This document shows, piece by piece, positions 4,255 through 28,691 of a stretch of DNA of 64,000 bases. Each line of letters begins with the position of its first letter. Position 1 is the first letter of the stretch. Location of the stretch: assembly GCA_020186115.1 (NCBI GenBank), contig WSYJ01000178.1:1302001-1366000 (forward strand). Direction: 5' to 3'. Position numbers and translations under genes: made by a program. The DNA comes from Histomonas meleagridis (taxonomy: Eukaryota > Parabasalia > Tritrichomonadida > Dientamoebidae). The notes below the pieces were generated by a model that saw nothing but the letters and a program-made list of their open reading frames with translations, had not been told where the DNA came from and did not search any database.

Positions 4255-6439
4255 CTAATGAGAGCTACCCAACATTAAACTTATATTTTTATAAAATTTC
4301 ATCTTCATCATTAATAATAATTCTTTCTTGACCATGAAATAGTTTAATGATTTCTGTATAACCATTTGTAGATGCGTACAGAAGTGCTGTATTAAATAAT
4401 TTAAATAATTTCCAAATATTATTTTGAAATAAAAAATTATTAAAATAAATATCAAATAAAACAAATAAATATTTTTAGCATTAATATGAATTCCTTCTTG
4501 TTCAAGAAGTAATTTAACTATTTCTGTATGACCATTTATAGATGCTCTAATAAGTGCTGTATCATCTAATTAAAAAAATTTCCATATAATATTTTGAAAT
4601 ATAAAATTATTAAAATTAAGATTAAATAAAACAAATAAATGTTTTTAAGATTAATATCAATTCCTTCATGTTCAAGAAGTAATTTAACGATTACTGTATG
4701 ACCATATTCAGATGCTTTCATAAGTGCTGTATAAAATAATTTAAATAATTTCCAAATATTATTTTGAAATCCAGAAATATTAAAATAAATATCAAATAAA
4801 ACAAATAAATATCTTTAGCATTAATATCAATTTCTTTTTATTCAAGAAGTAATTTAACTATTTCTGTATGTCCATTATTAGATGCATACATAAGTGCTGT
4901 CCAAAACAATTTGAATAATTTCCAAATATTATTTTGTAATATCAAATAAAACAAATAAATATCTTTAGCATTAATATCAATTCCTTCTTGTTCAAGAAGT
5001 AATTTGACTATTTTTATATGACCATTTAAAGATGCTTTCATAAGTGCTGTTTCAAATAATTTGAATAATTTTCAAATATTATTTTTAAATTGTAAATTAT
5101 TGAAATAAATATTAAATAAAACAAATAAATATTTTTTGCATTAATATCAATTTCTTTTTGTTCAAGAAGTAATTTAACAATTTTCATGTGACCATTTTCA
5201 GATGCTCTAATAAGTGCTGTATCATCTAATTAAAACAATTTCCAAATATTATTTTGAAACATCAAATGATTAAAATAAATATCAAATAAAACATATAAAT
5301 ATCTTTAGCATTTATATCAAAACATTTTTGCCCAAGAAGTAATTTAATGAGTTCATAATTTTTTGATTTTGCTGAAAATACTAAAATATTTTTTGGAATT
5401 TGATTATTTTGAGCATAATATTCAACTAGATATAAATTTCCGTTTCTTGCTGATTCATTAATTACAGGATTTTTGTTTTCAACAATATTTTCTTCCAATA
5501 ATGAAAGAATTTTATAATTTCCTTTTTCTATACAAAAACATTCCAAATTTTGGCTTAATTCTTCAATTTTATTTTCATAAAGATATTTAAATATATCATT
5601 TCGATGAAACATAATTGCAGCTTCAAATGCGCCTATAAATGATGAGTGATTTTGTTCACATAAATGAATAATTTCTTCATTTCCGCCTGCAACAGCATAT
5701 CCACCTGTGTTTTCTACTTTTGAACCATTCATAAGTAAATATTTAAAACATTTAATCGCAGAAAAAAATGCAGCATAATCAATTAATGTAACATTTTCTT
5801 TATTAATAAAGTCACATCTTTCATAAAGTGATGGTTCAATTTTTTGGTTAAAATCAAAATTTGGTTGTGATGATATTTCTTGAAGTTTTTCCATTTCATC
5901 ATTTCGAATTATTTTCGCAAGTTCATTTGGATTATGTCCTTCTTTAACATATTTCTTATGAAGCGCCCAATCATTCTTCGAAAGTTTTTTATATTTTTCT
6001 CTAAGTGTATCTTCGAATTGATTCTTGCGATATTTGCTTTTATTTTCTTCCTCTGTTTGGTGGTAATGTACAAAATATGGAAAATCGATTTTTTTGTTAC
6101 ATCTTTATCAATTAAATTTATTTCAAGCATTTTTTCAATTATGTAAAATGATTCTTGTGAATTGATATCAACTAAATTGTTAGTAAAAATTTCAATAATT
6201 TTTTGAATATTTTTATTTATTTCTTCTTCTTTTGTTTGAATTATTTCTAAATATTTAAAATATATATTGTTCACATCCTTTTGTGTAAAAAATACAAAAT
6301 AAATCAAATTACTTAAGATAGAATTAAATGAATATGGATGATTTGTATCAAATATTTTCATTGTTTGATCGACTGTAAATTCAAAATTTTCTTCTTTTAA
6401 ATTAAATATAATTTTCTCTAATTCTAAAAGCAATTCCAT
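4255..6439 (-). pseudogene. DUF3447/ankyrin-repeat gene, broken
   Basis: A close relative of the better preserved gene at 26919-28691. The N-terminal helical part is open from 6439 to about 6050. The reading frame then shifts: the conserved stretch N-D-x-x-L-H-K-K ... K-E-G-H-N-P-N-E-L-A-K-I-I-R-N-D-E at about 5900-6000 is in a different frame from the upstream part. The DUF3447 block is open at 5262-5894, with the L-I-D-Y-A-A-F-F and A-V-A-G-G-N motifs. Seven ankyrin modules follow down to about 4270. One carries an in-frame TAA (near 4847). The modules are separated by six AT-rich spacers, five of 83 nt, which break the frame. Read literally, no full-length protein is possible. Whether the spacers could be removed from RNA is discussed as a finding, but the upstream frameshift and the TAA still argue for a pseudogene. 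Confidence 0.75.
4391..5303 (-). repeat. Tandem array of ankyrin modules (87 nt) and AT-rich spacers (83 or 63 nt)
   Basis: Spacers lie at 4391-4473, 4561-4643, 4731-4813, 4901-4963, 5051-5133 and 5221-5303. Five are exactly 83 nt and one is 63 nt. The modules between them are all exactly 87 nt (29 codons, from T-A-L to I-N-A-K). The spacers share a core, AATAATATTTGGAAATT in coding orientation, about as well conserved as the coding modules. The 63-nt spacer differs from the 83-nt class by a 20-nt deletion. Confidence 0.9.
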
Positions 6440-6783
6440 TTAAATTTATTTTCAGTGAGAGTTTTATTTCGTCTTGATTCCTTGTTTCAGTCGACAAAAT
6501 GGGAATTCACAGAATTATTTGGAAAGTGCTTGCTCAGATAAATAAACGGTGGAAAATTCTTCAATTAAAAATCATTTTTCTTAATGTATTCTCAACATTA
6601 TGAAAATCATATTTTATACCAATACAAACCTTGTGCATGTATGTGCATCAAAGGCTGAAATGAAAATATCTAATTTTAATTTTTTTAATTTCATAAATAT
6701 GAAGACAAATGTGTACACATTGTTTAATTAAATTTCGCAAACCATTAAAAACAGATAAAATATATTTGAATTTACATAAAAAA
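6440..6783. other. Intergenic region between the ankyrin pseudogene and the HID1-like gene
   Basis: AT-rich, no gene seen. It contains one ATAAACGG box at about 6541-6549. In the orientation of the ankyrin gene this reads CCGTTTAT and lies about 100 bases before its start, so it may be its promoter element. Confidence 0.4.
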
Positions 6784-8733
6784 TTATTTCTCATCAAGAA
6801 ACTTTGATAATTCGTCATCTTCACCAAATGGATTTGGTATTTGTTCACTTAATATATCATTTTGCGCGATTTCATTTTCCCCATTTTCGCTTTCATTTTC
6901 TTCTTCCGCAGCGATTTGTTCTTCGAGAAACCTTTCGAATTCCGTTTTAACTTCCGATTTTTCCTTTGGAACAATTTCAATGTTTTTGTCCTCATTTTCG
7001 TCTTCATTTACTTCTTTGTTTCCGACTTCGATTTCGTATTTCTTCGGCATTTCAAACGATTTGATTTGGAGTCCGAAGTTTTCCGCTTCTTCCGGAAATA
7101 TCTTCCAAAACAAAACTTTAAACCAATCGAACAAAACCTCATTTAACTTGTTATTAATCTCAAACTCTTTTTGCGGTATTGGATCTTCATTAAATTCATT
7201 TAGGATCGGAGCAATGCTATTTTGTAATTTTAATAATTTCTCTTTTTCATTCTTTATATGTAGTGCTTTCTCGCCAGCATTAATTATAGATAAAATCTTT
7301 TCGACAATATTCTTGAATTTATTGTTATTCCCAACTATTTGAAGATTTTTTTTGTTCGTTGAACAAAACATGAAAAGTGACACTTTACCCAGCGGCTGAA
7401 ACCGCAGGAATTGAAAAAGTGAAATCAAAACGTACTCTATTGAATTTTGATTGACTTTTGGATTTGAGAACATTTTTTTGGCAAACACAAAAATTCTATT
7501 GGCAGAAAAATACGACAGGTTAGCGGTTGTTGCAGACAAATTCGTAATTATTCCAATGATGAAAGGAACAATCGAAATATTTGCATCGAAGTTATCATTA
7601 TTCAAAGGGTTTGTTATTACTTCTATTATCAAATCCGATACCGTTCCACGATGAGGTTTTATTAAATTAGTATTAAAAACTCCTACAAACGGAGTATTAA
7701 GTTTAATTAGTGCCGAATAATTTGATATAATTTTACTTAAAATTAATAAAATTAATGTATGGAAAAATGTAATATTTTGCTCTTCATATTTGATTTCATA
7801 TAAAAACAAAATAGATGAAATATAATCATTAGATAAATCATAGACAGATATAAACTCAATAAAAGTAGGAAATCGATGCATAATTACAAGTAATAATGTG
7901 ATGTAATAATCCGAAAACTTTTTCACTTTTTCAATGACGTAAAATGAATTAGATGAATATGATGAAACTTGTAAAAGCGGAGAAAAGCAGTGATTGATGA
8001 TGTTTTGATCAATGTTTTGTAACCTCCATGAATTACAACTTAATAAGGATGGTAATGAAAAGGTTACTAATGATTTGATAAAGTGAAATGCTTGTGGAGA
8101 TTTATTATGTAAGAGAACTTCTGGTATAAGATGGAAAAAAGTGGGTAAAAAAGAACTGGATTGAAAAGTCTCAAAGGATAACATGTATGGAGTAGGTATT
8201 GCCTTTGGTTGATCATTTAAACTATCCGCATTTTGGATAAACAAAAGAGTTTTGACATACGTAAGACGAATGGAAAGAAGATTATTTTGAAGGATTTGAT
8301 TTATTGGTTGCGAAAATTGAAGTAGACGTTGAAGTGTTTGAATTAAAGTTGAAATTGGTGATAATGCAGATAAATAAACACCTGGCATTTTAAACCATGG
8401 TGAGTTCTGTGGTGGTTCGTGAGATATAGAAAGCAAAAAACATATAAAGTTACAAACACCAATAAACGATGGATTTTGTACATTTTCTGAATCACTTATT
8501 TTTGATGCTTTAGAAAATGCATCAACTGTAACTTTTATTAAATGTGCTAAATTATTGGGATAGTTTTCTTTTATTTCTAGAAATAAAGATTTGATTTCTG
8601 GCGAATATGTAAAATTACCAATTGATTTAATAGAAAAATTATTCCATACTTGATGGTCTGGTGGGCAATTTTCTTGTTTTAGTATTTGTATTGAAGATGT
8701 AATATTACTACTAAAAGAAACAACACCCCCCAT
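6784..8733 (-). CDS. HID1: HID1-like Golgi/trans-Golgi trafficking protein
   Basis: 649 residues from the ATG at 8733. I prefer this start to an upstream ATG at 8868 because the family begins with an N-myristoylation signal, and this one starts M-G-G-V-V-S. The first 60 residues keep the order seen in HID-1: a V-W/F-W acid-aromatic segment, then E-I-K/R-x-L, then N-x-P-x-N-L-A-x-L. Around residue 390 there is a second family block: an L-L-L-L-S helix, L-N-x-P-F/Y, H-x-G-T-x-x-D-L-I-I-E-V, then I-N-L-S x T-A-N-L-S-Y-F-S-A-N-R. The C terminus (about 590-649) is strongly acidic. HID-1 is a peripheral, myristoylated Golgi protein needed for dense-core vesicle and secretory sorting. Trichomonads have a very large Golgi. 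Dymeclin, another M-G-starting HEAT-like Golgi protein, was considered and fits less well. Confidence 0.7.
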   Translation of the reverse strand: MGGVVSFSSNITSSIQILKQENCPPDHQVWNNFSIKSIGNFTYSPEIKSLFLEIKENYPNNLAHLIKVTVDAFSKASKISDSENVQNPSFIGVCNFICFLLSISHEPPQNSPWFKMPGVYLSALSPISTLIQTLQRLLQFSQPINQILQNNLLSIRLTYVKTLLFIQNADSLNDQPKAIPTPYMLSFETFQSSSFLPTFFHLIPEVLLHNKSPQAFHFIKSLVTFSLPSLLSCNSWRLQNIDQNIINHCFSPLLQVSSYSSNSFYVIEKVKKFSDYYITLLLVIMHRFPTFIEFISVYDLSNDYISSILFLYEIKYEEQNITFFHTLILLILSKIISNYSALIKLNTPFVGVFNTNLIKPHRGTVSDLIIEVITNPLNNDNFDANISIVPFIIGIITNLSATTANLSYFSANRIFVFAKKMFSNPKVNQNSIEYVLISLFQFLRFQPLGKVSLFMFCSTNKKNLQIVGNNNKFKNIVEKILSIINAGEKALHIKNEKEKLLKLQNSIAPILNEFNEDPIPQKEFEINNKLNEVLFDWFKVLFWKIFPEEAENFGLQIKSFEMPKKYEIEVGNKEVNEDENEDKNIEIVPKEKSEVKTEFERFLEEQIAAEEENESENGENEIAQNDILSEQIPNPFGEDDELSKFLDEK

Positions 8734-8815
8734 TTTAGATTTTTGGTGAGTTTTTTCATTGAAATTTTTATATAATTGAATTAAAATAATTTTGTCAAGT
8801 TTTTTACGATGGTAT

Positions 8816-8829
8816 GGCCGTTTATTTAG
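8816..8829. promoter_or_regulatory. Putative shared promoter element GGCCGTTTATTTAG
   Basis: It lies between the divergent HID1-like (minus) and RhoGAP (plus) genes, only a few bases before the RhoGAP ATG at 8833. The CCGTTTATTT core recurs upstream of several other genes in this window. A Myb-like recognition element is my inference. Confidence 0.5.
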
Positions 8830-8832
8830 AAA

Positions 8833-9600
8833 ATGTACGCACATTTTTTTACTAGAAGCTCTGATCAATTTGGTGGGAAAATATCATTTATAGTCACTGA
8901 TATTATTACTCAATTACGAAAGATGGATGCCAAAAAAGAAGAAGGAATATTTCGTCTAAATGGTGGCGGTAAAGAAATTCAACAACTTTGTGCCGAATTA
9001 GATAATGGAAGAGTAGTTGATTGGGATAAATACCAAAACCCTCATACATTAGCATGCGTTCTTAAAAAATATTATCGTGAAACTTATACAATCCATCCTT
9101 TAATCCCAAGCTTTGTTTATAGTGAAGTACTTGACATACCAAGAATAGGTGGTGATACTGTAGCACAATTTAAAGCTGTATTTGCAAAAATCAATCGAAG
9201 CACATATCAAGAACTTGCACTTTTAATGACTTATTTGCATGAAGTATCACTTGAATGCGAACAAAATAAGATGGATGCCTCTAATTTATCGCGTATGTTT
9301 GGTCCAAACATATTATTATTAAAAGATGAAAATCCAGATATGATTGATGTCAAAAAACATGAAGCAAGAAATGCTGCCATTGAATTACTCATCCAAAACG
9401 CTGATAAGATATTTGAGGGATTTCAACTTTCACCTTTAAATGTTCTTAAAGATGAAGAAATACAAAAAATTTCACCAACTCAATTTTCTTATCAAGATAT
9501 AGCAAACTCACTTAGGCTAAGAAAGCTAAGAATGAATTCATTAATCCCTTATCTACCAAAGGAATTTTATAATGCATCAAATTTTGTTCATCCAAAGTAA
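8833..9600 (+). CDS. RhoGAP-domain protein
   Basis: 255 residues, essentially one RhoGAP domain with a short C-terminal tail. The catalytic arginine finger is R41 in G-I-F-R-L-N-G. The second conserved patch, T-L-A-C-V-L-K-K-Y-Y-R-E, is at about 72-83, and the N-L-S-R-M-F-G-P-N helix is present. It is predicted to accelerate GTP hydrolysis by a Rho/Rac GTPase, which in trichomonads would be a Rac-type protein controlling actin. No membrane segment or lipid-binding domain is seen. The start is directly downstream of the shared CCGTTTATTT element, leaving an extremely short leader, usual for parabasalids. The stop lies in TAAA. Confidence 0.9.
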   Translation: MYAHFFTRSSDQFGGKISFIVTDIITQLRKMDAKKEEGIFRLNGGGKEIQQLCAELDNGRVVDWDKYQNPHTLACVLKKYYRETYTIHPLIPSFVYSEVLDIPRIGGDTVAQFKAVFAKINRSTYQELALLMTYLHEVSLECEQNKMDASNLSRMFGPNILLLKDENPDMIDVKKHEARNAAIELLIQNADKIFEGFQLSPLNVLKDEEIQKISPTQFSYQDIANSLRLRKLRMNSLIPYLPKEFYNASNFVHPK

Positions 9601-10075
9601 AAAAAAAATTATTTGCATCTTAAGTTTGACCGATAGAAAATTCTGAAGATTTCGTATCAAAATCCAGTCAAAAACTTAAAATGTAAATATTTTTAGTAAA
9701 CTCTTGCTATGTTCTCAATTTTTTATTAGCTTTAACATTAACTCTGTTTAATTTTTGGTAATAATAAGCCGCTGAAATATTTTAAACTCAATTAAAGAGA
9801 ATTTGTACAAACATAAAATTTACTGAATCAGAGTTGTGATCAATTTTTCCTTCTTATTTTTATGATAACTTTTTTATTATTTAGAAGATGAAGAATTTTT
9901 TCTTTCCAAGAAGCAATGTAGATATACATTTTAAATGGTTAAAAATCATTTCCAAGAATCAAATGTTGTACAAAAGTGCCATGTTGTGGCTCTTGTTGCC
10001 GATCAAATAAAGTATTTAATTATAATTCCATTGGAATTGTGAGTGTTTGTTTGGTTATATATATAACAACAAATT
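9601..10075. other. Intergenic region with a possible misframed N-terminus for nicalin
   Basis: Mostly AT-rich. From 9976 a short open frame encodes a Cys-rich start followed by a hydrophobic run (about 10030-10095), overlapping the nicalin start in another frame. It may be the true N-terminal anchor of nicalin separated by one frameshift, or chance. Confidence 0.3.
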
Positions 10076-11449
10076 ATGCTGTTCTTGTCTTTAATAGGCA
10101 TTGTTGCGTCACACAAAACAATGCCCGCATACCGCCTTTTGCAATACACATCCAATATTTCAAATTCAACGGTGTTAGGATCAACTCGCGTATCAATTGA
10201 TTCACAAATTCAAAAACTTGGTTCCAAGCCAGATTCCAAAAAAGCTGTTTTTATTCCATTAAAAGATGCCGATGTCGAAACTGTTGCTTCATATATAAAC
10301 GCGTCATCTCCAATAATTTTTCAAGTCGACGATAAAGTAAGTGACACAAATGAACTTGAAGACTTCCTTTTAAGCGGCATGCAAAAGGCTCCAATTTATT
10401 TTATTTTTGGCAAAAATGAAATTCCATCTGAATTTTCATACGTAAAAACAGTAGATATAAAAGCAAATAATCCAATTAAAAAGACCAAAATGCAAAACGT
10501 CATTGGCATAATAAACTCCAGTAGGACATATGGACAAGAAAAAATTGCAATAATTACAGCAGCTTTAGACAGCTTTTCAACAGCTCCATCAGCACCAATT
10601 GGAGCCAATAGCAACGGTATTTCTCTTGCAGCACTTCTTGAAATCATGCGTCAAGTTTCCAAATTCCCAATTACCAACAACTGGGTATTTATCTTTGCTC
10701 TTACTGATGGTAACTACTGTGGGTATGAAGGTCTTGAGAAGTATCTCAGTGCATTGTCAGCAGTTCATTCTTCAAAGATCAAATTTGCTGTATCATTAGA
10801 ATCCATTTCTTCTCCCAAACTCCGCGGTGTCTTTGGTCAGCGTCTTCGTCGTGATTCTGCTTTTGCAAATTTCATGTACAGTTTACTCGACGCACTGAAA
10901 ACGGTTGGCATTCAATTTGACAGCGGTTTGAACGATGAGGAGCACTTTTCTCAGCTATCGTTCAACAAACACCTCATCAACTCAATTGCGATCTTAAATC
11001 AAGATGGAGATCGAATTTCTCGAGTAACTGATACTGTTCCTAATGTAACCCGTGCAAATGATATTGCTTGGGCTGTCTCAGAAGGATTACTTCGTATGAT
11101 GTATAACGCAGATAATACAGCAACAATGATAGACCGCGATTCAGTTGATACATCAAAGTGGGCAGATATAATCGCAAATGTACCAAGAATGTCTGCATTT
11201 AGAGATCAGACATTTTCTCAGGTAATCCTTCAATGGATGAAAAAGTTTACACCATCAGCAACAATTGATGAGTGGACATCAAACAAATGTATAGCACCAT
11301 ATACAGCAGCTTCAGCAACACTCGTATTCTATAATAGGGTCTCATTCAAGAAATTAGCAATGCTTTTCATAGTTGGTGTTGCATATGGAGTAGCTGCGCT
11401 TCTCTTAACTGGCCGGAAGAAGGTCTTTGAGCTGTTGTCACACAAGTAA
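10076..11449 (+). CDS. NCLN: Nicalin-like ER membrane protein (M28-peptidase fold, catalytically dead)
   Basis: 457 residues. The opening of the luminal domain, P-A-Y-R-L-L-Q-Y, matches nicalin's V-Y-R-M-Q-Q-Y. The core carries A-L-D-S-F-S-T-A-P followed by G-A-N-S-N-G-I-S-L-A-A-L-L-E-I, which aligns with Y-D-A-F-G-x-A-P ... G-A-D-S-N-G. The metal ligands of true M28 peptidases are not retained. Near the C terminus a V-F-Y-N/D motif is followed by a single membrane segment (about 420-443) and a short basic tail, as in nicalin. In animals nicalin forms the BOS complex with TMEM147 and NOMO at the multipass translocon. The annotated start gives an unusually short signal sequence (M-L-F-L-S-L-I-G-I-V-A-S). 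An upstream frame could supply a longer anchor. The stop is in TAAA. Confidence 0.8.
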   Translation: MLFLSLIGIVASHKTMPAYRLLQYTSNISNSTVLGSTRVSIDSQIQKLGSKPDSKKAVFIPLKDADVETVASYINASSPIIFQVDDKVSDTNELEDFLLSGMQKAPIYFIFGKNEIPSEFSYVKTVDIKANNPIKKTKMQNVIGIINSSRTYGQEKIAIITAALDSFSTAPSAPIGANSNGISLAALLEIMRQVSKFPITNNWVFIFALTDGNYCGYEGLEKYLSALSAVHSSKIKFAVSLESISSPKLRGVFGQRLRRDSAFANFMYSLLDALKTVGIQFDSGLNDEEHFSQLSFNKHLINSIAILNQDGDRISRVTDTVPNVTRANDIAWAVSEGLLRMMYNADNTATMIDRDSVDTSKWADIIANVPRMSAFRDQTFSQVILQWMKKFTPSATIDEWTSNKCIAPYTAASATLVFYNRVSFKKLAMLFIVGVAYGVAALLLTGRKKVFELLSHK

Positions 11450-11589
11450 ACAAAACAGATTAATAAGAATTTTTTACACTTCCCAAACAAAGCATACCAG
11501 CACTAGTTTTTTGAAATTTAGCAAACATATGTCCTACAAATAAATTTGTTTGTCGGAATTGTTCATTGTTCAAATTTTTATTACATTAA

Positions 11590-11603
11590 ATAACCGTCGA
11601 ATT
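11590..11603 (+). promoter_or_regulatory. AACCGTCGAATT element
   Basis: It lies about 125 bases before the start of the cysteine-rich membrane protein gene and is one of the recurrent AACCGT boxes in the window. Its function is inferred from recurrence only. Confidence 0.3.
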
Positions 11604-16704: not shown

Positions 16705-17285
16705 TATTTAAATATCTTTCGCATCAATGTCAATTCCTACTTGTTCAAGAAGTAATTTCACTATTTCAATGTCACCATTTTCAGATGCAATCACAAGTGT
16801 TGTATCAAATTATTCGAATAATCACCAAATATCATATCAATAGATTTCTGATGTATAAAATACTTGACAAGCTCAATATTACCAAAATTATTTTCTATAA
16901 TAAAATCACTAATAAGATTTATATTTCCAATTTGCAAATTAATGTTTCATTGGTTTCTATTCCTTCTTTTATCAAAAAAAGAAAGAATTTCAAAATTACA
17001 ATATGTTATGCATTTATCTCCTAAAGTTTCTAGTTTTATAATGTCTTTGATACCATATTTATTATAAAGATAATAAAATATATCATTTAGATGAAATATA
17101 ATTGAATTATCATATGATATATCTGAATATTTACAATTTTGCTCACAAAGATGAAAAATTTCAAGATTCCCACCTGCAACAGCATATTTATATGTTTTTT
17201 CTATTTTTGCACCATTCAGAAGTAAATGTTTAAAACATTAAATAGATCCAAAAAATGCTGCATAATCAATTAATGTAACATTGAA
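16705..17285 (-). pseudogene. DUF3447/ankyrin gene remnant
   Basis: On the minus strand the sequence matches the intact ankyrin gene in pieces. The DUF3447 end (L-I-D-Y-A-A-F-F-like, A-V-A-G-G-N) lies at about 17170-17285. A stretch around 17070-17100 codes F-H-L-N-D-I-F-Y-Y-L-Y-like residues. A single ankyrin module lies at about 16705-16805, with its loop spacer beginning at 16809. Stops and frameshifts occur throughout and there is no start. It is a truncated, decayed copy. Confidence 0.7.
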
Positions 17286-20262: not shown

Positions 20263-21513
20263 ATGATTCGTTTTCATGTTTGTTTCTTAAGAATGAGATA
20301 TTATTATTTCCTTTTTCAATTTATTAGAAAAAAAATAAGCGTAAAAAATGAATTCATAAAAAAACCTAATCATACTTTTATTTTTTTTTTAATGTTTCTT
20401 TTTTTCATCTCCACAATCTATTGTCATAATCCTAAGCACAAGATTATTTATTATGGAAATAAGGATTCAACTCTTGTACCTGATATTAAAAATTATGATC
20501 AAAAATATTGCAATGAAAAAAAAAATTTGCACAAATGTGAAAAAATTAAAGAGATATTTAAAACATTTTCAGAAATTTTAATTTTCAAGGATTTAAGCGA
20601 ACTTGTAAACTTGAAAAAAGATCTTTTAGGACTTAATTCAGCAGTTATATTCATTGGTGAAAACCAATCTAATCCATTAGATCTTTCTGGTGTTACAATT
20701 CCAAAACTAGGCATTAAATCATATGGTTTAAACAAAAGTTTATATATTAAAGGAATTAATGTATCAAATACAATTCCTGTTATTGTTTTAGATGATAATA
20801 TTCAATTCGATGGTAATTTTATAGCAGATACTATTTATATCAATCAGTTAAAAGATGGAAAGTTAAATGCCAATCGTGTTATTATCCCATCATTTCGAGA
20901 AACAAAAAATATCCAAGCAAATAAAATCGAATATTTTTATTTCTCTCCTTTTGATATTAATATTGATGGTGATAGATATATAGTAAGTTCTAAACCAATT
21001 AATTTTAAAGATAAGATTAGCATTGTTGCTGATCCTTATACTGGAAAAGATTTTGAAATAAATATGACTTTAAAAAAGAGTTGTAATGAATTTTCATACA
21101 TAGAAATATACCTTGAAAAACCTTTCGAAAGTTTGACATATAGTTTCATGGATCCTGATGATATGGATATTGTGATGTTGGGAGAAAAAATATTTACGTC
21201 TTCAGATGTTCCTAAAATTAAATTTTCATTTGACAAAAATGATTGGGATAAGTCAAATGTAAAACTAAATATTATTACTTCTCCGAGTTCTAAAAAATTT
21301 ATAGATATTAGTGGTATACCTGCACGTGTTTTGGCAACAGTGAAAGAAGATACAACATTTGTAGGAAAAAGTATATCAAAATATAATTATGGGAATAAGA
21401 CGTTTGTATTAGTCATTGCTATAGTTTTTTTGTTGGTTGTTTCCGTTATTATTGCTTTCATTTATTTGAAGTGCCACTCAAAAAATTCCTCAGATTTAAA
21501 TTTTAATTATTAA
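20263..21513 (+). CDS. Type I membrane surface protein of unknown family
   Basis: 416 residues from 20263. A second ATG at 20392 gives 373 residues starting directly at a signal peptide (M-F-L-F-F-I-S-T-I-Y-C), and the first 43 residues are probably leader or mis-annotated. The ectodomain (about 55-380) is rich in Asn, Ile, Asp and Lys, with paired cysteines near 85-95 and a single one near 272, and several N-x-S/T sites. Short strands such as I-P-V-I-V-L-D-D-N and F-I-A-D-T-I-Y-I suggest a beta-rich fold. One membrane segment (about 382-405) precedes a short K-C-H-S-K cytosolic tail. I do not recognise the family. It is predicted to sit on the cell surface or in the endomembrane system. Confidence 0.6.
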   Translation: MIRFHVCFLRMRYYYFLFQFIRKKISVKNEFIKKPNHTFIFFLMFLFFISTIYCHNPKHKIIYYGNKDSTLVPDIKNYDQKYCNEKKNLHKCEKIKEIFKTFSEILIFKDLSELVNLKKDLLGLNSAVIFIGENQSNPLDLSGVTIPKLGIKSYGLNKSLYIKGINVSNTIPVIVLDDNIQFDGNFIADTIYINQLKDGKLNANRVIIPSFRETKNIQANKIEYFYFSPFDINIDGDRYIVSSKPINFKDKISIVADPYTGKDFEINMTLKKSCNEFSYIEIYLEKPFESLTYSFMDPDDMDIVMLGEKIFTSSDVPKIKFSFDKNDWDKSNVKLNIITSPSSKKFIDISGIPARVLATVKEDTTFVGKSISKYNYGNKTFVLVIAIVFLLVVSVIIAFIYLKCHSKNSSDLNFNY

Positions 21514-22078
21514 AAAAATTATTATAAAAATTGATTTTTTCTTAGAATTATTGTAAAAAGCCGATTTTTTCACATGAATAATTTAATGCCTCTAATGCAT
21601 TATTAAAGTTCTTAAAAATATTAAAGAATTGTATTAATTAGAAAGGACATTTCACAAATTTTATTTTTTTTGAAATGCACCAAAATATTTTGAAAGCAAA
21701 AATTGGTAACAGGATTCTGATTCTAATTAGTTTTTGGTTGCTAATATACTATGATAGCAATTCTTAGATATTGAAGAGTGTTATTAAAATTGATCCTAAC
21801 AATTTCCAAAAATTTTTTGTTTTTTATTTCATGACAATATGAGTGTTTTTCATTAGATAGCTCTTGCCTGAAAATTATATATATGACTCAAAAATATCTC
21901 GTTCTGATAAATCATAACTACCCGTTGTACAAAATTAAACAAGTTATAATCCTCGAGGATGAGATTAACGTTATCCATTCAATATTGAATTTGCCGATCT
22001 AATGATATGCCGAACAAATTTCTTTGAATTTTGTCACTTTTCAGGTGCACTTTTTAGAGGCAAAACGGTTTATGAAAA
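21514..22078. other. Intergenic region upstream of the CEP131-like gene
   Basis: No gene seen. The last 20 bases hold AAAACGGTTTATG (about 22064-22076) just before the ATG, another case of the recurrent element. A TTTGTCACTTTT box about 40 bases before the ATG resembles similar TGTCACTTTT strings near 36547 and 40785. Confidence 0.4.
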
Positions 22079-22864
22079 ATGACAAACAATATTTTAAATC
22101 AATCAGAAACACTCAGTGAGCTCTATCAATTCTTGGATTCAGCAAAATCAAAAGATGTATCTGATTTGGTTTTACCAGATTTGAGTCAAGTAGAAGAGAT
22201 TCATTCTGAATTAAATATGAAGATTGAAGAACTTGAAAAAGAAATCAATCAATCCAAAGAAAACGAAAGGAAAACAAAAGCCATTATGGCAAAAAACATT
22301 GAAGATTTCAACAAAGAAAAAGAAAAGCTTATTTCAAAATATGAAAAAAAATTAGCATTACAAAAGAATAATTACGAAAAAGCGCTTAAGCATTATCAAG
22401 CCCTTCTTCAAGATTCTATCCGTGAGAAGGAAGAACTAGTTGATCAAATTGAACTTTTGTCAAAAAAAATCATTGTTACCCGAGAAGAATCATCCAAACG
22501 TGAAAAAGAGATTCAACGTCAAGCGTCCATACAGATAACACAACAGCGGGAACTTGCAATTTCACAGAACAAAGCGCAACAAAAGAAAATATATTCAAAA
22601 AAGCTCAAAACCGCCAAAGAAACCGCTTTGAAATCCTTTGAACCCGAATTGAATAGTTTACTCGAAAAGCATCAAAACGAAATAAATGAAATCAATCAGA
22701 ACCATAAAAAAGAACTAAACGAATTACGAGAAATGATAACAAAGCAAATGAATGAAGAAAGAGAACGAATTGTTGAAAACTTAAAAAAACAACATGAAAT
22801 TGAATTAAAAGAAGTCGAAGAAAGATATAAAGCGCAAATATTAAAACTAAAAGAACTGAACTAA
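22079..22864 (+). CDS. Coiled-coil protein, CEP131/AZI1-like
   Basis: 261 residues, almost entirely coiled coil from about residue 40 to the end, rich in K, E, Q and N. The segment A-L-K-S-F-E-P-E-L-N-S-L-L-E-K-H followed by N-E-I-N-E-I-N-Q-N-H-K-K-E-L (about 183-215) resembles the signature of CEP131, where a G-L-E-P-E-I-Q-x-L-I-x-K-H is followed by a helix of the same register. CEP131 is a centriolar-satellite and basal-body protein needed for cilia. Trichomonads have basal bodies and four or five flagella, so the role would fit. The protein is far shorter than animal CEP131 and would correspond only to its C-terminal coil. Coiled-coil composition alone can mislead, so the family call is moderate. 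Confidence 0.5.
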   Translation: MTNNILNQSETLSELYQFLDSAKSKDVSDLVLPDLSQVEEIHSELNMKIEELEKEINQSKENERKTKAIMAKNIEDFNKEKEKLISKYEKKLALQKNNYEKALKHYQALLQDSIREKEELVDQIELLSKKIIVTREESSKREKEIQRQASIQITQQRELAISQNKAQQKKIYSKKLKTAKETALKSFEPELNSLLEKHQNEINEINQNHKKELNELREMITKQMNEERERIVENLKKQHEIELKEVEERYKAQILKLKELN

Positions 22865-23305
22865 GGTAACGTGAGAAATGTTTATGTTGTAAGTAAATAT
22901 AACTTTTATTATTTTAAATAAATTTTTTTTTAAACATCAAATTATATTGTTAACTAAGAAAAATAAAACCTTTTATCATGTTTGATGAACAGTAATCATT
23001 TATTCAACTGCATTAGTCCTAATGCTTTTGTAATTACATGTGTGGGTAAAATCATGATGCGATATGTTGTTGTCTCTTATATAAAATATTTTGTTAATGT
23101 AATTATGTTAGGGTAATGTATAAAAATAACATCTGCAAAAAAATAAATGGTCACGATTTTTAAAAAACAAAATTCGAAGGTTATTATACATTATATAATA
23201 TGTTTTTTAATGAGCATAATTTTCTTCCTTTTTATTTCGAAATAAAGAAATATCAGATTGGAGCACCCCAATATCCGAGCAAACTCTTTCAAATGCTAAC
23301 AAAAG
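22865..23305. other. Intergenic region with no recognised content
   Basis: AT-rich. A TTTCAAATGCTAAC stretch sits just before the ribophorin start. It contains TCA in an initiator-like context, but this is too weak to call. Confidence 0.3.
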
Positions 23306-24625
23306 ATGCTGGCCCAATTTCTTCTTTTTACATTTGCTCTTTCGGAAACAAATATAATAAATACAGAAGTTAACAGAAAATACAGTATAAAAGATGATCT
23401 AATAGTAGTTAATGTTTTAGTTAAAGTTTTAAACCAAGGTGAACCATTTTCAAAATACACTTTCACAATTCCGGATCGCGAAAATCAGCATATTGGACAT
23501 ACAACAGCTTCTTTTTCAACAAATAACATACGTTCATTCGACAAATCACTTCCAATTTCTGTAAATGGTAATGAGTACACTGTTGATCTTCAGAAAGAAA
23601 TACCAAATGGAGAAGAATTCACGTTATACTTTTCTTATACATTAGGTGATTACTTGTTGTTCATAAAGCAAAAAGTTTCATTAAATCAACGAATCCAACT
23701 TTATTTCAATACAACAAAATTCTTTAAATCAAAGTACGAGACAAGGAAATCTTCTCTTTCGATCTCAGGCATTCCAAAGGCATCCATTACTACTCCGAAG
23801 CACATTCTTGAAGATTCAGGAATTCGAATACAATCGTCAATGATTATCCTGAAAGATTTGACGAACGATGATGGATCTGACTTCGAAATCGAGTTCACGA
23901 CGTCCCGACCGATGATTCGTATTGATCAAATAATATCACAAACTACAGTCTCTCACTGGGGAAAGACCAAACAAAAGGCGTTCTACTCAGTGACAAACGC
24001 AGGGCCGAAGTTCACTGGTGAATTTAACAGAATTGATTTCAATCCTCGAACAACTCCATGCTTCACTCAGTCCATAGAAATGAGACCTCCGAAGGGTGCC
24101 CGTAACTTTTGGGCCTCTGATGAATCAGGGCTTCTCCAGAAAGAGCTTTCTTTGACTGGAGATAATTTATTGATTCCTCTTCGTGGTCCAATGCTTAGCA
24201 GTTGGAAGGCAACGTTTACTGCTGGCTGGACCATAGATACTTCTGTGTTTGTTTCTGGGGGATATCGCTTCGAATCTCCACTTATTACAAAATGCGTATC
24301 AGCTCCTGTAACAGAGGTTGTTGCAGAGTTTGTTCTCCCAGAAGGAGCCGTCGTCGTGGATGTACAGGTTCCAATTGATGCAAATGTCACCAAATTCATC
24401 CAGCCACATAACCTCGATTTGAACGGCCGAACCGTCGTAAGGATTGAGGCCGACCATCTCTCGACTGAGGACGACGTGCCTGTTGTGATTTCTTATCATT
24501 TGAGCGCACATTATCACTTCTTGAAGATATTAACATTAAGCGTCGCATTTGTCATTGTGTTTGTAGCAATAATCGTTGCAAGGCGTTTCGATTGCGGAAT
24601 AGCAAATAAGCAAAAAACTCAATAA
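23306..24625 (+). CDS. OST1: Ribophorin I, oligosaccharyltransferase subunit OST1
   Basis: 439 residues. A cleavable signal peptide (M-L-A-Q-F-L-L-F-T-F-A-L-S) is followed by two beta-rich luminal domains and one membrane segment (about 404-427), with a short basic tail. Family landmarks are the V-S-H-W-G motif near residue 212, matching I-E-V-S-H-W-G-N in ribophorin I, F-x-G-x-F-x-R-x-D-F/Y at about 232-240, A-x-x-F/Y-W/Y-x-x-D-E-S/I-G at about 262-272, and I-P-L-R-G/P-R ... L/S-W-K at about 290-302. Ribophorin I is an essential accessory subunit of the ER N-glycosylation complex, placing substrate near STT3. The length is about 150 residues below the human protein, mostly lost from the cytosolic tail. 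The stop is in TAAA. Confidence 0.88.
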   Translation: MLAQFLLFTFALSETNIINTEVNRKYSIKDDLIVVNVLVKVLNQGEPFSKYTFTIPDRENQHIGHTTASFSTNNIRSFDKSLPISVNGNEYTVDLQKEIPNGEEFTLYFSYTLGDYLLFIKQKVSLNQRIQLYFNTTKFFKSKYETRKSSLSISGIPKASITTPKHILEDSGIRIQSSMIILKDLTNDDGSDFEIEFTTSRPMIRIDQIISQTTVSHWGKTKQKAFYSVTNAGPKFTGEFNRIDFNPRTTPCFTQSIEMRPPKGARNFWASDESGLLQKELSLTGDNLLIPLRGPMLSSWKATFTAGWTIDTSVFVSGGYRFESPLITKCVSAPVTEVVAEFVLPEGAVVVDVQVPIDANVTKFIQPHNLDLNGRTVVRIEADHLSTEDDVPVVISYHLSAHYHFLKILTLSVAFVIVFVAIIVARRFDCGIANKQKTQ

Positions 24626-25166
24626 ATCTTATCAAATGTAATTATCAATCTAATTATAAGAAAAGAAAAATTTGCAGTAACGTTAAGCCATAATACAATA
24701 TAAGCAATTTCATGTGAGATTTACAATTTTAATATGAATTATTGCATATTGAGCTATAAAGTTATAAACTTATGAAAACTTTAAATTTTCTTCAAAATCT
24801 CCAATTGTTGTTACATTTTCTCCAATGATAACTGTTTATAATTGGATGAATTTTGTTGTTTTCTTAAATTAAGTTTGTTTGCATATCTTAATCCAAAATT
24901 AATTTTTTATCATGTTTTAATTCTACCTAAATCGTTGTATATCACATTTCTGATGAATACTTTCCGCCTGGTTAAGGTTTATGACCCCCTTATGTCAAAC
25001 TAGTTTCAACTTTACGAAATTATAAGATATTAATATAATCAATATAGTTAAGTTATTATTAAAACAAATGAAAAAATGCGCCGCTTGAATTCAATAAAAT
25101 TTATATAAACCCATAAATCAGGTTGCAGTTCTATTATTGGCATAACGGATTTCGATATAGTGTTTT
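24626..25166. other. Intergenic region with a short antisense BspA repeat remnant
   Basis: At 24791-24831 the minus strand codes I-I-G-E-N-V-T-T-I-G-D-F, one BspA-type LRR unit, without neighbours. The rest is AT-rich with no gene. Confidence 0.45.
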
Positions 25167-26442
25167 TTGGAAATCTATTTAATCGCATTTTGGGATTGTA
25201 CATCATTAACAAATATTAAAATTCCTAATTCAGTTACATCAATTGAAACTTATACATTTGGCAATTGCTATAAATTAGAAAAAATAAAAATCGGTGAAAA
25301 TGTTGAATCAATTGGAGATTATGTATTCTTTATGTGTTCATCTTTAAGTAATATAGAAATTCCATATGCAGTTACATCGATTGGAAGGCATGTATTTGAA
25401 CGTTGTAAGTCATTAATTAATATCGATATTCCAAATGCAGTTACATTAATTAGTAATGCTGAATTTTTTATTGCGAATCATTAATTAAGATCACAATTCC
25501 AAATTTAGTTAAAACAATTGAAACTGAAACATTTTCAAATTGCTATAAATTAGAAACGATTAAAATTGGTGAAAATGTTGCAACAATTGAATATAAAGCA
25601 TTTTATTATTGTCAAGATTTAAAATGTATTTATTTTACAGGCCACAAATCACCAAATATAGATTCAAATGCATTTTTAAATGTGTCAGCGCAATGTGTTA
25701 TGACGTCATATTTTTATGAGGCTGAATCATTTGGAGCGCTTTCAGTATCGAAAGGTTCTTCCATTGATCAATGCGATCAATATATTTGGCCAACGCATAC
25801 ATTCACTAAATCAAATGCGTTTATACAATCAAATACATTTACTAAGTCAAATTCATTTTCTCCAAGTAATACATTCACTAACTCAAATTCATTTACTAAA
25901 TCAAATGCTTTTACACAATCGAATACATTCACTAACTCAAATTCATTTACTAATTCAAATAAATTTACATCTTCATTTCGATTTGATGTAACATTCGTTC
26001 AAACATTATTTTCGAAACATTCCATTACATAAACAATTATTTCCAAAACGATATTACCGAAAACGATTTTTATTACTTTATTTAAATCAACATATTTTTA
26101 TTATTATTCAAATTTGATATCATATGAATATATCATTCAACAATATTCGACATATTATATTATATATTTTATACATATTATAGTTATATCTTTAGTACAT
26201 TTGAAAATAGATCAGGTAAAAATAAAATGTCGAATAATCTTTTGATTGGTATTATCTGTGGTTCAATCTTTATCATTCTTCTTATTGTTGGTATTATTTT
26301 GTTCTTAATTAGAAGAAATAGAAATAAAAATTCGTATGTTAAAACTGAAACAACACCTTCGAGTTCAGTCACGAAACAACAAAACATTGAAAATGTCGAT
26401 GAAGAATTCAAAAATTTTATACTAAAAGAGAATGATCAATAG
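25167..26442 (+). pseudogene. BspA-like leucine-rich-repeat surface protein, broken and 5'-truncated
   Basis: LRR units of about 23 residues run from 25167 (no ATG, TAG just upstream). The frame breaks at 25461-25475. Adding back one T in the T run at about 25464-25469 would restore F-Y-C-E-S-L and the next unit, so a one-base loss in a homopolymer explains it. The following frame is open from about 25475 to 26032, covering more LRR units, the C-I-Y-F-T-G-x-K-S-P motif and a stalk of S-N-T/S-F-T repeats. After TAA at 26030-26032 there are about 195 bases, and then an open frame at 26227-26442 with a membrane helix, a basic stop-transfer R-R-N-R-N-K and a 45-residue tail. The layout parallels the locus at 17678-19059. 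Sequencing error cannot explain the missing 5' end. Confidence 0.75.
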
Positions 26443-26886
26443 ATATAATTTCTAATCATGTTTAAAATGGTAAATTTTACTGGGAATTTTTGTTGCATGC
26501 CCACTCTGGTAGGTAAAATTGTAAAAAGTCAAATTAGTATAAATTTAAATTTCATTTATTTATTCATATGTAAACTATACACTATTTGCATTGTAAAGCA
26601 TTTAAAAAATGTATGGAACGATCAAAATGTCTTTCATTACGTTAACTTCAGTGAATTATCTTTATTTTGTTTTTAATATATTTTTTTTAAATATATTATT
26701 ATTCATCTGATTGGGATCTAATAGGCGGATAGATCAATGTATTCAAAATTCATATTATTTTGATGCTGTACAACTTTATACCTCAAATATTGTAATATTT
26801 TTCCTAAATTACAGACTTTCAACAAGTATATATACAGATATTTTTTATTGCAAATATACAACATAATGTTTTTATTTCGTGAAAAA
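26443..26886. other. Intergenic region with no recognised content
   Basis: AT-rich DNA between the convergent BspA remnant and the ankyrin gene. Nothing recognisable. Confidence 0.35.
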
Positions 26887-26918
26887 CTAAGTGGAAACTT
26901 TAGCTAGTTTGGAATTGA

Positions 26919-28691
26919 TTAATATTCGAATTTCTTCATGACATTGTTCTGCTGCCCATATAAGTGCTGTATTAAATAATACAAATAATTTCCAAATATT
27001 ATTTTGAAACAAAAAATTAATATGATAAATATTATATAAAACATATGAATATCTTTAGCATTAATATCAATTCCTTCTTGCTCAAGAAGTAACTTCGCTA
27101 TTTCTGTATGTCCTTTTTCGGCAGCGATCATTAACACAGTAAAAAATAATTTAAATAATTTCCGAATATTATTTTCATACAAAAAATTATTAAAATAAAT
27201 ATTATCTTTAGTATTAATATCAATTCCTTCTTGTTTGAGAAGTAGTTTAACTATTTCAGTATGACCCTCTTCAGTTGCATTCATAAGTGCTGTATCAAAT
27301 AATTTAATTAATTTCCAAATATTATTTTGAAATAAAAAATAATAAAAATAATTATATTTAGCATTAACATCAATTCCTTTTTGCTCAAGAAGTAATTGAA
27401 CTATTTCTATATACCCTCTTATAGATGCAATAATAAGTGCAGTTATAAATAATTTAAACAATTTCCAAATATTATTTTGAAATATGAAACAATAAAAATA
27501 AATATTATCTTTAGCATTAATATCAATTCCTTCTTTATTAATAACATATTTAATAAGCTCAATGTTTCCTGATTGTGTTGATGAAATAATGATGTCTTTT
27601 GGGATTTCGTTTTCTGCAAGGAAATATTTGACAAGAAATATGTTTCCTGTTCTTGATGCAAAATTTATAACATCTTCGTTAACTTTCATTCCTTCTTTTT
27701 TTAAATATAATAAGATATCATAGTTATGGTATGAAATGCATTTAATACCTAATTCTTCTAAACTGTGGGTTTTTTCGATTTTGTTTTCATAAAGATATTT
27801 AAAGATATCATTTTGATGAAATTCAATTGCTGCTTCATATGCATTTTGAAAAGATGAATGATTTTGTTCACATAAATGAATTATCTCAAGATTTCCACCA
27901 GCAACTGCATATTTACCTGTATTAATTACATTAGCACCATTCATAAGGAAATATTTAAAACATTTAACTGATGAAAAAAATGCTGCATAATCAATTAATG
28001 AAACATTTCTTTGATTAATAAATGAACACATTTCATAAAGTGATGGTTCAATAGTTTGGTCAAAATCAAAATTTGTTTGTGATGATATTTCTTGAAGTTT
28101 TTCTATTTCATCATTTCGAATTATTTTTGCAAGTTCATTTGGATTATGCCCTTCTTTGATTAATTTCTTATGAAGTTCGAAATCATTCTGTGTAAGTTCT
28201 TCATAAGGAATTTTTTCTGTGATATTGAACCTCTTTATATGATAAATATTTAATATATCTTGATGATAATGAATAAAAAATGGATCTTTCATATTTTGAA
28301 TAATTTTTGCTTCAATCAAATTATGATCTATCATGAAATTTAGATAATAATATGATTCTTTTGTTCTTTTTTTAAGAAGATATCGAGAAAATACATCGGA
28401 TATTTCTGATGTACACTTTTTGTCTTTCTCATGTTTTTCTATTTCTTGTAATAATCTCAAATATATCTCATAATCATTATTCCAAATGGAAAATGATTTA
28501 AATATCATATGGCTTACAACCATATTAAAAGATATTGGATATTTATCTAAAAATTTATTAATTATGAAATTTACTGATTGATCAAAATTATTTGAGTTTA
28601 AATAAAAAATTATATCTTTGAGTGTTGTTAATATTTTCCATTCATTTTGAGGTTTTTGTTGATTTTCTTCGTTTTCTTTATCATTTAACAT
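26919..28691 (-). CDS. DUF3447/ankyrin-repeat protein
   Basis: 590 residues from the ATG at 28691. The frame extends to 28742, but that part overlaps the CCGTTTAT promoter-like box, so the later ATG is preferred. The N-terminal 190 residues are helical and charged. The DUF3447 region (about 225-310) has L-I-D-Y-A-A-F-F-S-S-V-K-C-F-K-Y, A-V-A-G-G-N-L-E-I-I-H and H-Q-N-D-I-F-K-Y. Ankyrin modules follow (G-H-T-E-I-V-K-L-L-L x Q-E-G-I-D-I-N-x-K). Each is interrupted in the loop before T-A-L by an AT-rich spacer coding F-Q-N-N-I-W-K-L-F-K-L-F-like residues. Three spacers (66, 63, 66 nt) keep the frame. The last (83 nt) shifts it, so the literal C terminus leaves the ankyrin register. If that spacer were removed, an ankyrin half-repeat and TAG at 26887 would end the protein. 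It is probably a cytosolic scaffold of unknown partner. Confidence 0.65.
   Translation of the reverse strand: MLNDKENEENQQKPQNEWKILTTLKDIIFYLNSNNFDQSVNFIINKFLDKYPISFNMVVSHMIFKSFSIWNNDYEIYLRLLQEIEKHEKDKKCTSEISDVFSRYLLKKRTKESYYYLNFMIDHNLIEAKIIQNMKDPFFIHYHQDILNIYHIKRFNITEKIPYEELTQNDFELHKKLIKEGHNPNELAKIIRNDEIEKLQEISSQTNFDFDQTIEPSLYEMCSFINQRNVSLIDYAAFFSSVKCFKYFLMNGANVINTGKYAVAGGNLEIIHLCEQNHSSFQNAYEAAIEFHQNDIFKYLYENKIEKTHSLEELGIKCISYHNYDILLYLKKEGMKVNEDVINFASRTGNIFLVKYFLAENEIPKDIIISSTQSGNIELIKYVINKEGIDINAKDNIYFYCFIFQNNIWKLFKLFITALIIASIRGYIEIVQLLLEQKGIDVNAKYNYFYYFLFQNNIWKLIKLFDTALMNATEEGHTEIVKLLLKQEGIDINTKDNIYFNNFLYENNIRKLFKLFFTVLMIAAEKGHTEIAKLLLEQEGIDINAKDIHMFYIIFIILIFCFKIIFGNYLYYLIQHLYGQQNNVMKKFEY
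26971..27509 (-). repeat. Ankyrin modules with intra-repeat AT-rich spacers (83, 66, 63, 66 nt)
   Basis: Spacers lie at 26971-27053 (83 nt), 27141-27206 (66), 27294-27356 (63) and 27444-27509 (66). They occupy the same loop as in the 4.4-5.3 kb array and share its AATAATATTTGGAAATT core. The modules between are 87 nt, so spacer insertion is at a fixed ankyrin position in both genes. Confidence 0.88.

What the first reader, a model, noticed from the sequence alone, without database searches (positions are those of the whole stretch)
4391..27509. Ankyrin repeats interrupted at one fixed loop by AT-rich spacers of 83, 63 or 66 nt
Seen directly: in two loci (4391-5303 and 26971-27509) ten spacers occur, with lengths 83 (six), 63 (two) and 66 (two). 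All lie in the loop before T-A-L. Modules between spacers are 87 nt (29 codons). A full ankyrin repeat is 33 residues (99 nt), so each spacer holds 12 nt of ordinary loop and an excess of 71, 51 or 54 nt. 83 is not a multiple of three, yet the modules downstream stay open (one TAA in the array at 4391-5303). Spacer sequences are alike in both genes. In the 26.9-kb gene the last 83-nt spacer shifts the frame; without it an ankyrin half-repeat would end at TAG 26887. Neither GT-AG nor the parabasalid splice consensus (GTATGT ... ACTAACACACAG) is visible in the spacers. Possible meanings: unusual introns, frame-changing insertions copied with the repeat, or neutral decay.
Basis: partly seen in the sequence, partly recalled or inferred. 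Interest (0 to 1): 0.75.

Follow-up and report, generated by a model that had tools for sequence, protein, structure and literature searches.

The report
Seventeen-base inserts between single codons
In what looks like a poultry parasite, ankyrin-repeat genes seem to be interrupted by 17-base inserts placed before single codons, so the cell must somehow skip or cut them out to make the protein, and they do not look like known introns.

Summary
The ten spacers are real, but composite. Each is a train of 20-nt units: a 17-nt insert (94% A+T) followed by one codon. The four triplets read D-x-x-G-x-T-A-L, the ankyrin loop. In 113 distinct 80-nt spacers, 0 of 452 triplets is a stop (23 expected if columns were independent), Gly is third in 98 of 113, and only one of 18 registers tested scores as an ankyrin loop. 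Modules keep their frame (15 of 182 with a stop; 87 expected under shuffling). A more distant ankyrin gene has repeats of 96-102 nt, and 119 (+17), 119 (+17), 153 (+51) and one unexplained 154. A second family has trains of 2-17 units. A diagnostic 23-mer has 5,952 copies in the 43.3-Mb genome (reversed control 6), so perhaps 20,000 inserts. Ends are A(W)TT...ATTT; 0 of 452 are GT-AG, although canonical-looking introns exist in the same genome. Best reading: each 17-mer is removed, probably from RNA, leaving single-codon exons. Codon-wise interruption is well supported; removal is inferred, as no RNA data were available.

The parts
26887..28742 (-). DUF3447-ankyrin gene; the literal open frame runs 28742-26919 through three 3-insert spacers, and ankyrin coding continues in another frame to TAG 26887-26889
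27444..27506 (-). 63-nt spacer: AAT + 3 units; inserts 27487-27503, 27467-27483, 27447-27463; loop N-H-G-I
27294..27353 (-). 60-nt spacer: 3 units; inserts 27337-27353, 27317-27333, 27297-27313; loop F-G-D
27141..27203 (-). 63-nt spacer: AAT + 3 units; inserts 27184-27200, 27164-27180, 27144-27160; loop N-F-G-F
26971..27050 (-). 80-nt spacer: 4 units; inserts 27034-27050, 27014-27030, 26994-27010, 26974-26990; loop N-F-G-N
4301..6439 (-). second DUF3447-ankyrin gene; frame break in its N-terminal half (frames 5265-6104 and 5912-6439) and a TAA in module 4811-4900
5221..5300 (-). 80-nt spacer, 4 inserts (5284-5300, 5264-5280, 5244-5260, 5224-5240); loop D-D-G-D
5051..5130 (-). 80-nt spacer, 4 inserts (5114-5130, 5094-5110, 5074-5090, 5054-5070); loop N-T-E-E
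4901..4960 (-). 60-nt spacer, 3 inserts (4944-4960, 4924-4940, 4904-4920); loop D-G-W
4731..4810 (-). 80-nt spacer, 4 inserts (4794-4810, 4774-4790, 4754-4770, 4734-4750); loop D-W-G-Y
4561..4640 (-). 80-nt spacer, 4 inserts (4624-4640, 4604-4620, 4584-4600, 4564-4580); loop N-Y-G-D
4391..4470 (-). 80-nt spacer, 4 inserts (4454-4470, 4434-4450, 4414-4430, 4394-4410); loop D-F-G-N; all four inserts equal a class consensus
46323..46362 (-). third locus, second insert family: 2 units (inserts 46346-46362, 46326-46342), triplets GAA GAA before ACA GCA CTT
46156..46235 (-). third locus: 4 units (inserts 46219-46235, 46199-46215, 46179-46195, 46159-46175), triplets TGG GAA GAA TAT
46236..46322 (-). 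uninterrupted 87-nt ankyrin module between the two trains

Best explanation
Each spacer is a series of separate 17-nt intervening sequences, roughly A(T/A)TT-N9-ATTT, each placed exactly between codons (phase 0) and each followed by one codon of the ankyrin loop. The codons are kept and translated; the 17-mers are not. Supported by sequence: the 17+3 architecture, codon-level constraint on the isolated triplets, and indifference of the reading frame to the number of inserts. Inferred: the 17-mers are cut out of the RNA before translation by an intron-like reaction with non-GT-AG ends and a nearly fixed length, leaving exons of one codon. Because a 20-nt unit adds exactly one codon once its 17 nt are gone, duplicating or losing a unit is frame-neutral, so loops can lengthen or shorten one residue at a time (2-17 units seen). 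The units spread by tandem and segmental duplication of ankyrin repeats.
For: (1) In 113 distinct 80-nt spacers, positions 18-20, 38-40 and 78-80 are the variable ones (58-60 is nearly fixed as GGA) and none of the 452 triplets there is a stop; expectation from independent columns is 3.3+12.1+1.7+6.0. Triplet 2, flanked by inserts on both sides, has 21 types, 0 stops (12.1 expected) and TGG 11 times (1.4 expected). (2) Read as loop x1x2x3x4 against 296 uninterrupted loops from homologous proteins, register 18 scores +4.79; the other 17 registers tested score -2.1 to -14.1. Gly is x3 in 98 of 113. (3) G+C: inserts 5.8%, triplets 31.7%, modules 27.3%. (4) 178 spacers (duplicates included) parse as IcIcIcIc 131, cIcIcIc 20, IcIcIcIcIc 5, IcIcIc 4, cIcIcIcIc 4, IcIccIcIc 4, IcccIcIc 3 and 7 single odd forms; insert lengths 17 nt 676, 16 nt 6, 18 nt 5. 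Only 30 of 178 are a multiple of 3 long. (5) Modules: 15 of 182 distinct with a stop, shuffled mean 86.6 (68-104). (6) A more distant ankyrin gene, L073 (no DUF3447 match in its 451-aa frame): repeat starts are 96-102 nt apart when uninterrupted and 119, 119 and 153 when interrupted, i.e. +17, +17, +51 over 102; one 17-mer splits KDENG|N-TPLH while another repeat of the gene reads SLDENGMTPLH intact. (7) Second family: 21 trains of 2-17 units in 9 records scanned, train length mod 3 = 0/1/2 in 6/8/7, 1 stop in 130 triplets against 16.0 expected. (8) P0004 and P0010, at most 55% and 57% identical to anything scored in this genome, have literal C-termini that decode to the same 80-nt and 63-nt layouts with Gly at x3; decoded by hand, with a computed check of the TAL part and of residue 20 for P0004 only. 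(9) Insert ends are alike across the four classes while the middles differ.
Against: No RNA or peptide evidence was available, so removal is inferred. Inserts have no GT-AG pair (0 of 452), no CTAAC (0 of 113 spacers) and no fold clearly better than shuffles in 5 of 5 spacers folded (z -0.66 to +1.46), so no known machinery is implicated. In the sampled loci the inserts lie in ankyrin loops, where retained or lost residues might be tolerated. Some arrays are broken; 21 of 221 full-length modules, duplicates included, hold a stop. pN/pS over whole modules is 1.42 among the closest pairs and 0.77 among the most distant; the split into framework 0.51 and surface 1.25 used surface positions that I picked after seeing which vary, so it is partly circular. 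One gap in L073 is +52, not a multiple of 17. Mutual information is not confined to triplets: some edge or insert pairs also score (S60-S61 z 3.7, S56-S57 z 5.1, S40-S42 z 4.6). The copies are related by duplication, so the stop expectations overstate independence.
Confidence: 0.75

Rival explanations
1. Translational bypassing: the inserts stay in the mRNA and the ribosome hops 17 nt before each loop codon, like T4 gene 60 or the Magnusiomyces mitochondrial elements.
For: Also explains codon-wise retention and frame neutrality; short AU-rich inserts.
Against: [quoted passage not shown] Up to 17 hops in a row would be needed.
Confidence: 0.08
2. One composite intron per loop (about 77 nt) is removed as a block; the triplets inside are relics.
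For: Would also restore the module frame; the cost is a loop three residues shorter (arithmetic).
Against: Inner triplet x2 keeps codon structure: 0 stops, 12.1 expected, TGG in excess. A single 17-mer occurs alone with the rest of the loop contiguous in L073. Trains of 2-17 units keep sense triplets, 129 of 130.
Confidence: 0.07
3. Neutral decay: arrays are unexpressed and inserts were simply copied with the repeat.
For: Some loci look decayed (L065, L068, L069; L050); the first window gene has a TAA and a frame break. Whole-module pN/pS is near or above 1 among close pairs.
Against: Stop avoidance in modules and triplets. For DUF3447, 150 of 1695 candidates were scored; all 150 pass the cut-off and 148 show no stop inside the matched domain, many in open frames of 350-500 aa.
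Confidence: 0.06
4. Spacers are translated literally as hydrophobic loop insertions.
For: Three-insert spacers are in frame; the 26.9-kb gene stays open for 607 aa; 16 of 24 distinct 60/63/66-nt spacers are open in that frame.
Against: Only 30 of 178 spacers are multiples of three. 8 of 24 distinct 60/63/66-nt spacers hold a stop in the literal frame. 80-nt spacers shift the frame.
Confidence: 0.02
5. DNA-level elimination, as for ciliate internal eliminated sequences.
For: Short AT-rich inserts with near-repeated ends (ATTT..ATTT).
Against: The inserts are in the assembled genome in thousands of copies; parabasalids are not known (recalled) to have a separate somatic nucleus.
Confidence: 0.02

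Closest known systems
Parabasalid spliceosomal introns (T. vaginalis types A and B)
   Same: Short, AT-rich; type B about 25 nt, down to 23 (PMC12316389: abstract, outline, passages and part 1 of the results). Canonical-looking GTATGT...CTAACACACAG introns with inverted repeats seen by eye are present in this genome (L053, L059, L060).
   Different: 17 nt, no GT-AG, no ACTAAC; thousands per genome against 63 active introns in T. vaginalis; exons of one codon.
Nonconventional introns of euglenids
   Same: Non-canonical borders, mechanism of removal unknown, purine common at the 5' end and pyrimidine at the 3' end (PMC4770533, abstract and passages).
   Different: Those form a structure that brings the ends together and range from tens of nt to over 1 kb. 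Here no fold clearly beats shuffles and the length is nearly always 17.
Mitochondrial byp elements / T4 gene 60 coding gap
   Same: Short non-coding inserts inside open frames that translation ignores (PMC5009743, passages).
   Different: Matched take-off/landing codons tested and absent; apparently nuclear genes; 17-nt length.
Ultra-short introns of ciliates such as Stentor (15-16 nt)
   Same: Comparable length (recalled, nothing read here).
   Different: Those are GT-AG (recalled).
Introners
   Same: Thousands of near-identical interrupting units in one genome (PMC9860276, start of abstract in the listing; a term search of its text gave no hit for Trichomonas, Histomonas or parabasalid).
   Different: In the loci sampled here the copies sit in ankyrin loops and spread with the repeat, not by scattered insertion.

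Membership tests
Spliceosomal intron (U2 type, parabasalid) | GT...AG ends | tested here: not met
   0 of 452 inserts are GT..AG; 247 of 452 are AT..TT
Spliceosomal intron (U2 type, parabasalid) | ACTAAC-like branch site fused to the 3' splice site | tested here: not met
   CTAAC in 0 of 113 distinct 80-nt spacers
Spliceosomal intron (U2 type, parabasalid) | removal from RNA shown by cDNA | not testable with these tools
Euglenid nonconventional intron | secondary structure bringing the ends together | tested here: inconclusive
   5 whole spacers folded: z from -0.66 to +1.46; single 17-mers with flanks not folded
[quoted passage not shown]
   5 of 452
Ankyrin repeat | TALxxA..G....VxxLL module and D-x-x-G-x-T loop | tested here: met
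   Pfam PF00023 103.6 bits for the literal frame of the 26.9-kb gene; loop consensus over four separated codons
DUF3447-ankyrin gene family | DUF3447 domain before the repeats | tested here: met
   PF11929 36.0 and 35.1 bits in the two window genes

The most novel reading that the evidence does not exclude
A previously undescribed class of intervening sequence: 17-nt, non-GT-AG elements excised precisely between single codons, perhaps 20,000 or more in one nuclear genome, forming a frame-neutral minisatellite that lets binding loops grow or shrink one residue at a time.
Probability: 0.6. Interest if true: 0.97.

Novelty: categorically new. Interest (0 to 1): 0.9.

Why it matters
If the inserts are excised, single-codon exons flanked by 17-nt non-GT-AG introns would break the accepted border rules of splicing and crowd the lower length limit, and a large gene family would have been misread by annotation: the published annotation reports 573-638 introns and its main text does not contain the word ankyrin. 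If they are bypassed, it would be ribosome hopping on an unprecedented scale. Either way it is a direct test of how little sequence an intervening element needs, and a possible new way to vary loop length without frameshift. Transcriptome reads could decide it quickly.

Tried and rejected
A GT-AG intron starting at the GT inside insert 1: by arithmetic it breaks the frame, and 11 of 20 63-nt spacers hold no GT at all. A hairpin or self-splicing element: no fold clearly better than shuffles in 5 of 5. Matched-codon bypass. Shifting the insert by one base: rejected because third-base choice depends on the first two bases (TGG excess, mutual information). Searching other collections for the same DNA: 0 hits in viral contigs and genome contigs. 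A regular-expression search for uninterrupted N-x-K/Q/R-D/N/G-x(2-5)-TAL loops in the 64 records held then gave 0, but uninterrupted ankyrin genes exist in the genome, including L070, which overlaps a DUF3447 match. Six hits that looked isolated in the lists were fetched; by eye six of six lie beside ankyrin modules. Literature searches in whose listings I saw no match for this phenomenon: (open-licence library only).

Limits: L031-L050 were chosen from the first 100 listed exact matches to one 23-mer (contigs C1-C8), so insert classes are sampled with bias. The 178 spacers include duplicates from overlapping loci (L006/L032, L021/L050); counts called 'distinct' were deduplicated. The parser penalises stop triplets, so its zero is not used as evidence; one search is at fixed positions. 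Registers 19 and 20 were not scored. In one search (933 hits, 152 'isolated') the printed list was cut; most 'isolated' hits that I could see are opposite-strand matches to a near-palindrome. Of the 21 trains at least two are cut short (end of L062, a broken unit in L063). In L073 I left out one regex hit at 563 that is not an ankyrin repeat. Other loci looked at for +17 steps (L074-L076) showed none that was clear: steps of 102 or 99, a +1 at a run of A in L075, and larger gaps not resolved.
Full report
WHERE. The window is a stretch of contig C112 of a 43.28-Mb, 121-contig genome. Size and GC fit Histomonas meleagridis: 43.1-43.4 Mb, 28.7% GC (PMC8529796, passages); contig C120 holds matches out to 3.364 Mb, near the published largest contig of 3.384 Mb, and three close homologues (P0014, P0017, P0019) are labelled Histomonas meleagridis. 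The published contig number (187 or 281) differs. The two genes of the finding are DUF3447-ankyrin genes.

THE OBSERVATION. Counting from the codon after the last module codon, they are 80 (six), 60 (two) and 63 nt (two). Modules are 90 nt, TAL...NAKD.

THE STRUCTURE. In 27 sources searched with a module profile (236 modules), 178 spacers lie between full 90-nt modules: 128 of 80 nt, 20 of 63, 8 of 83, 5 of 100, 4 of 60 and 13 of other lengths. Per-site variation in 113 distinct 80-nt spacers is low except at triplets 18-20, 38-40 and 78-80; 58-60 is nearly fixed as GGA. So the spacer is four units of 17+3. The four 17-mers have class consensus ATTTATTTGTTTTATTT, ATTTATTTTAATAATTT, ATTTCAAAATAATATTT and AATTATTTAAATTATTT. 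The triplets read K/N/E/D, Y/D/W/R..., G, N/E/K/D/R..., i.e. D-x-x-G-x-T-A-L, the loop of an ordinary ankyrin repeat. The window loops are N-H-G-I, F-G-D, N-F-G-F, N-F-G-N, D-D-G-D, N-T-E-E, D-G-W, D-W-G-Y, N-Y-G-D and D-F-G-N; nine of ten have Gly at the consensus place.

TESTS OF CODON STATUS. No stop among 452 triplets; 23.0 expected if columns were independent. TGG 11 against 1.4 at x2 and 5 against 0.14 at x4. Mutual information is high inside x2, x3 and x4, moderate inside x1, and mostly low across triplet edges, but not everywhere: S60-S61 z 3.7, S56-S57 z 5.1, S40-S42 z 4.6. Scored against 296 uninterrupted loops from homologous proteins, only register 18 of the 18 tested is positive. 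Base composition changes from 5.8% GC in inserts to 31.7% in triplets. The copies are related by duplication, so these figures are not independent trials; the agreement of several tests carries the case.

FRAME. 30 of 178 spacers have a length divisible by three, yet modules stay in the ankyrin frame: 15 of 182 distinct modules hold a stop, against 86.6 (68-104) when each module's own substitutions are re-placed at random. Whole-module pN/pS runs from 1.42 (closest pairs) to 0.77 (most distant), which alone would not show constraint. Split into framework (0.51) and surface codons (1.25) it looks like constraint plus diversification, but I chose the surface positions after seeing which vary, so this split is suggestive only. 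Literal reading of distinct 60/63/66-nt spacers is open in 16 of 24, so literal translation is not strictly maintained.

A SECOND FAMILY. Consensus ATATGTTTTAATAATTT, with 3142 hits at one mismatch or fewer against 510 for the reversed control. In L062 and L063 trains of up to 17 units separate ankyrin modules. In nine records scanned, 1 of 130 triplets is a stop (16.0 expected); it lies in L050, where the preceding repeat also reads TAA. Train length shows no preference modulo three (6, 8, 7). The window has two such trains (46323-46362 and 46156-46235). Long uninterrupted ankyrin loops occur in proteins labelled Tritrichomonas musculus, which makes long loops plausible.

AN INDEPENDENT GENE. 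L073, an ankyrin gene whose 451-aa N-terminal frame has no DUF3447 match at E <= 0.001, has repeat starts 102, 119, 99, 102, 102, 153, 119, 102, 154 and 96 nt apart: +17, +51 and +17 over 102. The 154 is +52 and does not fit simply. The second 119 is a single 17-mer between Gly and the next codon of KDENG|N-TPLH, while another repeat of the same gene reads SLDENGMTPLH intact. The uninterrupted repeats are an internal control. Three other loci checked the same way (L074-L076) gave no clear +17 step.

ANOTHER SPECIES. Of database proteins P0001-P0013, seven of thirteen end within one residue of the first Lys-Asp-type pair, five run on past it, and P0013 ends before it. The literal tails of P0004 and P0010 decode, by hand, to an 80-nt and a 63-nt spacer with Gly at x3 and TAL after it. 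For P0004 the TAL part was checked by script; random residues would pass with probability about 0.007. Best identity to G000 is 55% and 57% (99 of 8255 and 93 of 9529 candidates scored), so they probably come from another organism, or, less likely, from paralogues that were not scored.

HOW MANY. The 23-mer spanning insert 3, GGA and insert 4 has 5952 hits at three mismatches or fewer (control 6). With mostly four inserts per loop this suggests 20,000 or more inserts; an estimate, since most hits were not inspected. At one mismatch or fewer, class 1 alone has 3183 (control 87) and class 3 has 4078 (control 37).

NOT A KNOWN INTRON. The canonical 3' motif CTAACACACAG occurs 11 times (control 4). 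Three of these (L053, L059, L060) have GTATGT with 65-71 nt from there to the end of the motif and inverted repeats seen by eye between, so ordinary introns seem to coexist. The 17-mers share their ends: A at position 1 in 91%, T at 3 and 4 in 93-94%, ATTT at 14-17 in 90-95%; the middle differs between classes. None of 452 is GT..AG. The four classes, the second family and L073 differ in sequence but keep 17 nt (676 of 687 parsed inserts, with a parser that favours 17), which hints at a length rule.

MECHANISM. Supported: the codons are separate and constrained. Inferred: 17-mers are removed, most simply from RNA. Not known: by what. Consequence: a 20-nt unit adds one codon without frameshift, so loop length can evolve by unit duplication.

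COUNTER-EVIDENCE. No transcript or peptide was seen. The gene family is decaying in places. Inserts outside ankyrin loops were not seen in the sampled loci, but diverged inserts in other families were not searched for. One TMT proteome paper lists a protein annotated as KANK1 (one passage of PMC10063853); whether it belongs to this family is unknown. A second proteome paper has no hit for ankyrin in its main text (PMC6250841).

Noticed in passing
window 412-1610 (+): Two same-strand open frames (412-912 and 948-1610) in different frames may be one protein broken near 912-948; not tested for a 17-nt insert.
   Followed up: no
window 5909-6104 (-): N-terminal half of the 4-6 kb gene is split between two frames near a run of A; possibly an assembly error (by eye).
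   Followed up: partly
L073 minus strand 2072-2226: A spacer giving a repeat distance of 154 nt (+52) that does not parse cleanly into 17+3 units.
   Followed up: partly
L053, L059, L060 around 1500: Putative canonical parabasalid introns with GTATGTTT, an inverted repeat by eye and CTAACACACAG.
   Followed up: partly
window 16714-16803 (-): A lone ankyrin module with degraded flanks, apparently in a decayed DUF3447-ankyrin gene.
   Followed up: partly
window 25682-26032 (+): Short open frame of FTKSNSFTNSN-like repeats (18-nt period) near a leucine-rich-like frame.
   Followed up: no
L071 and other PF12796 matches: Large uninterrupted ankyrin open frames (up to 1578 aa) coexist with the interrupted genes in the same genome.
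   Followed up: partly
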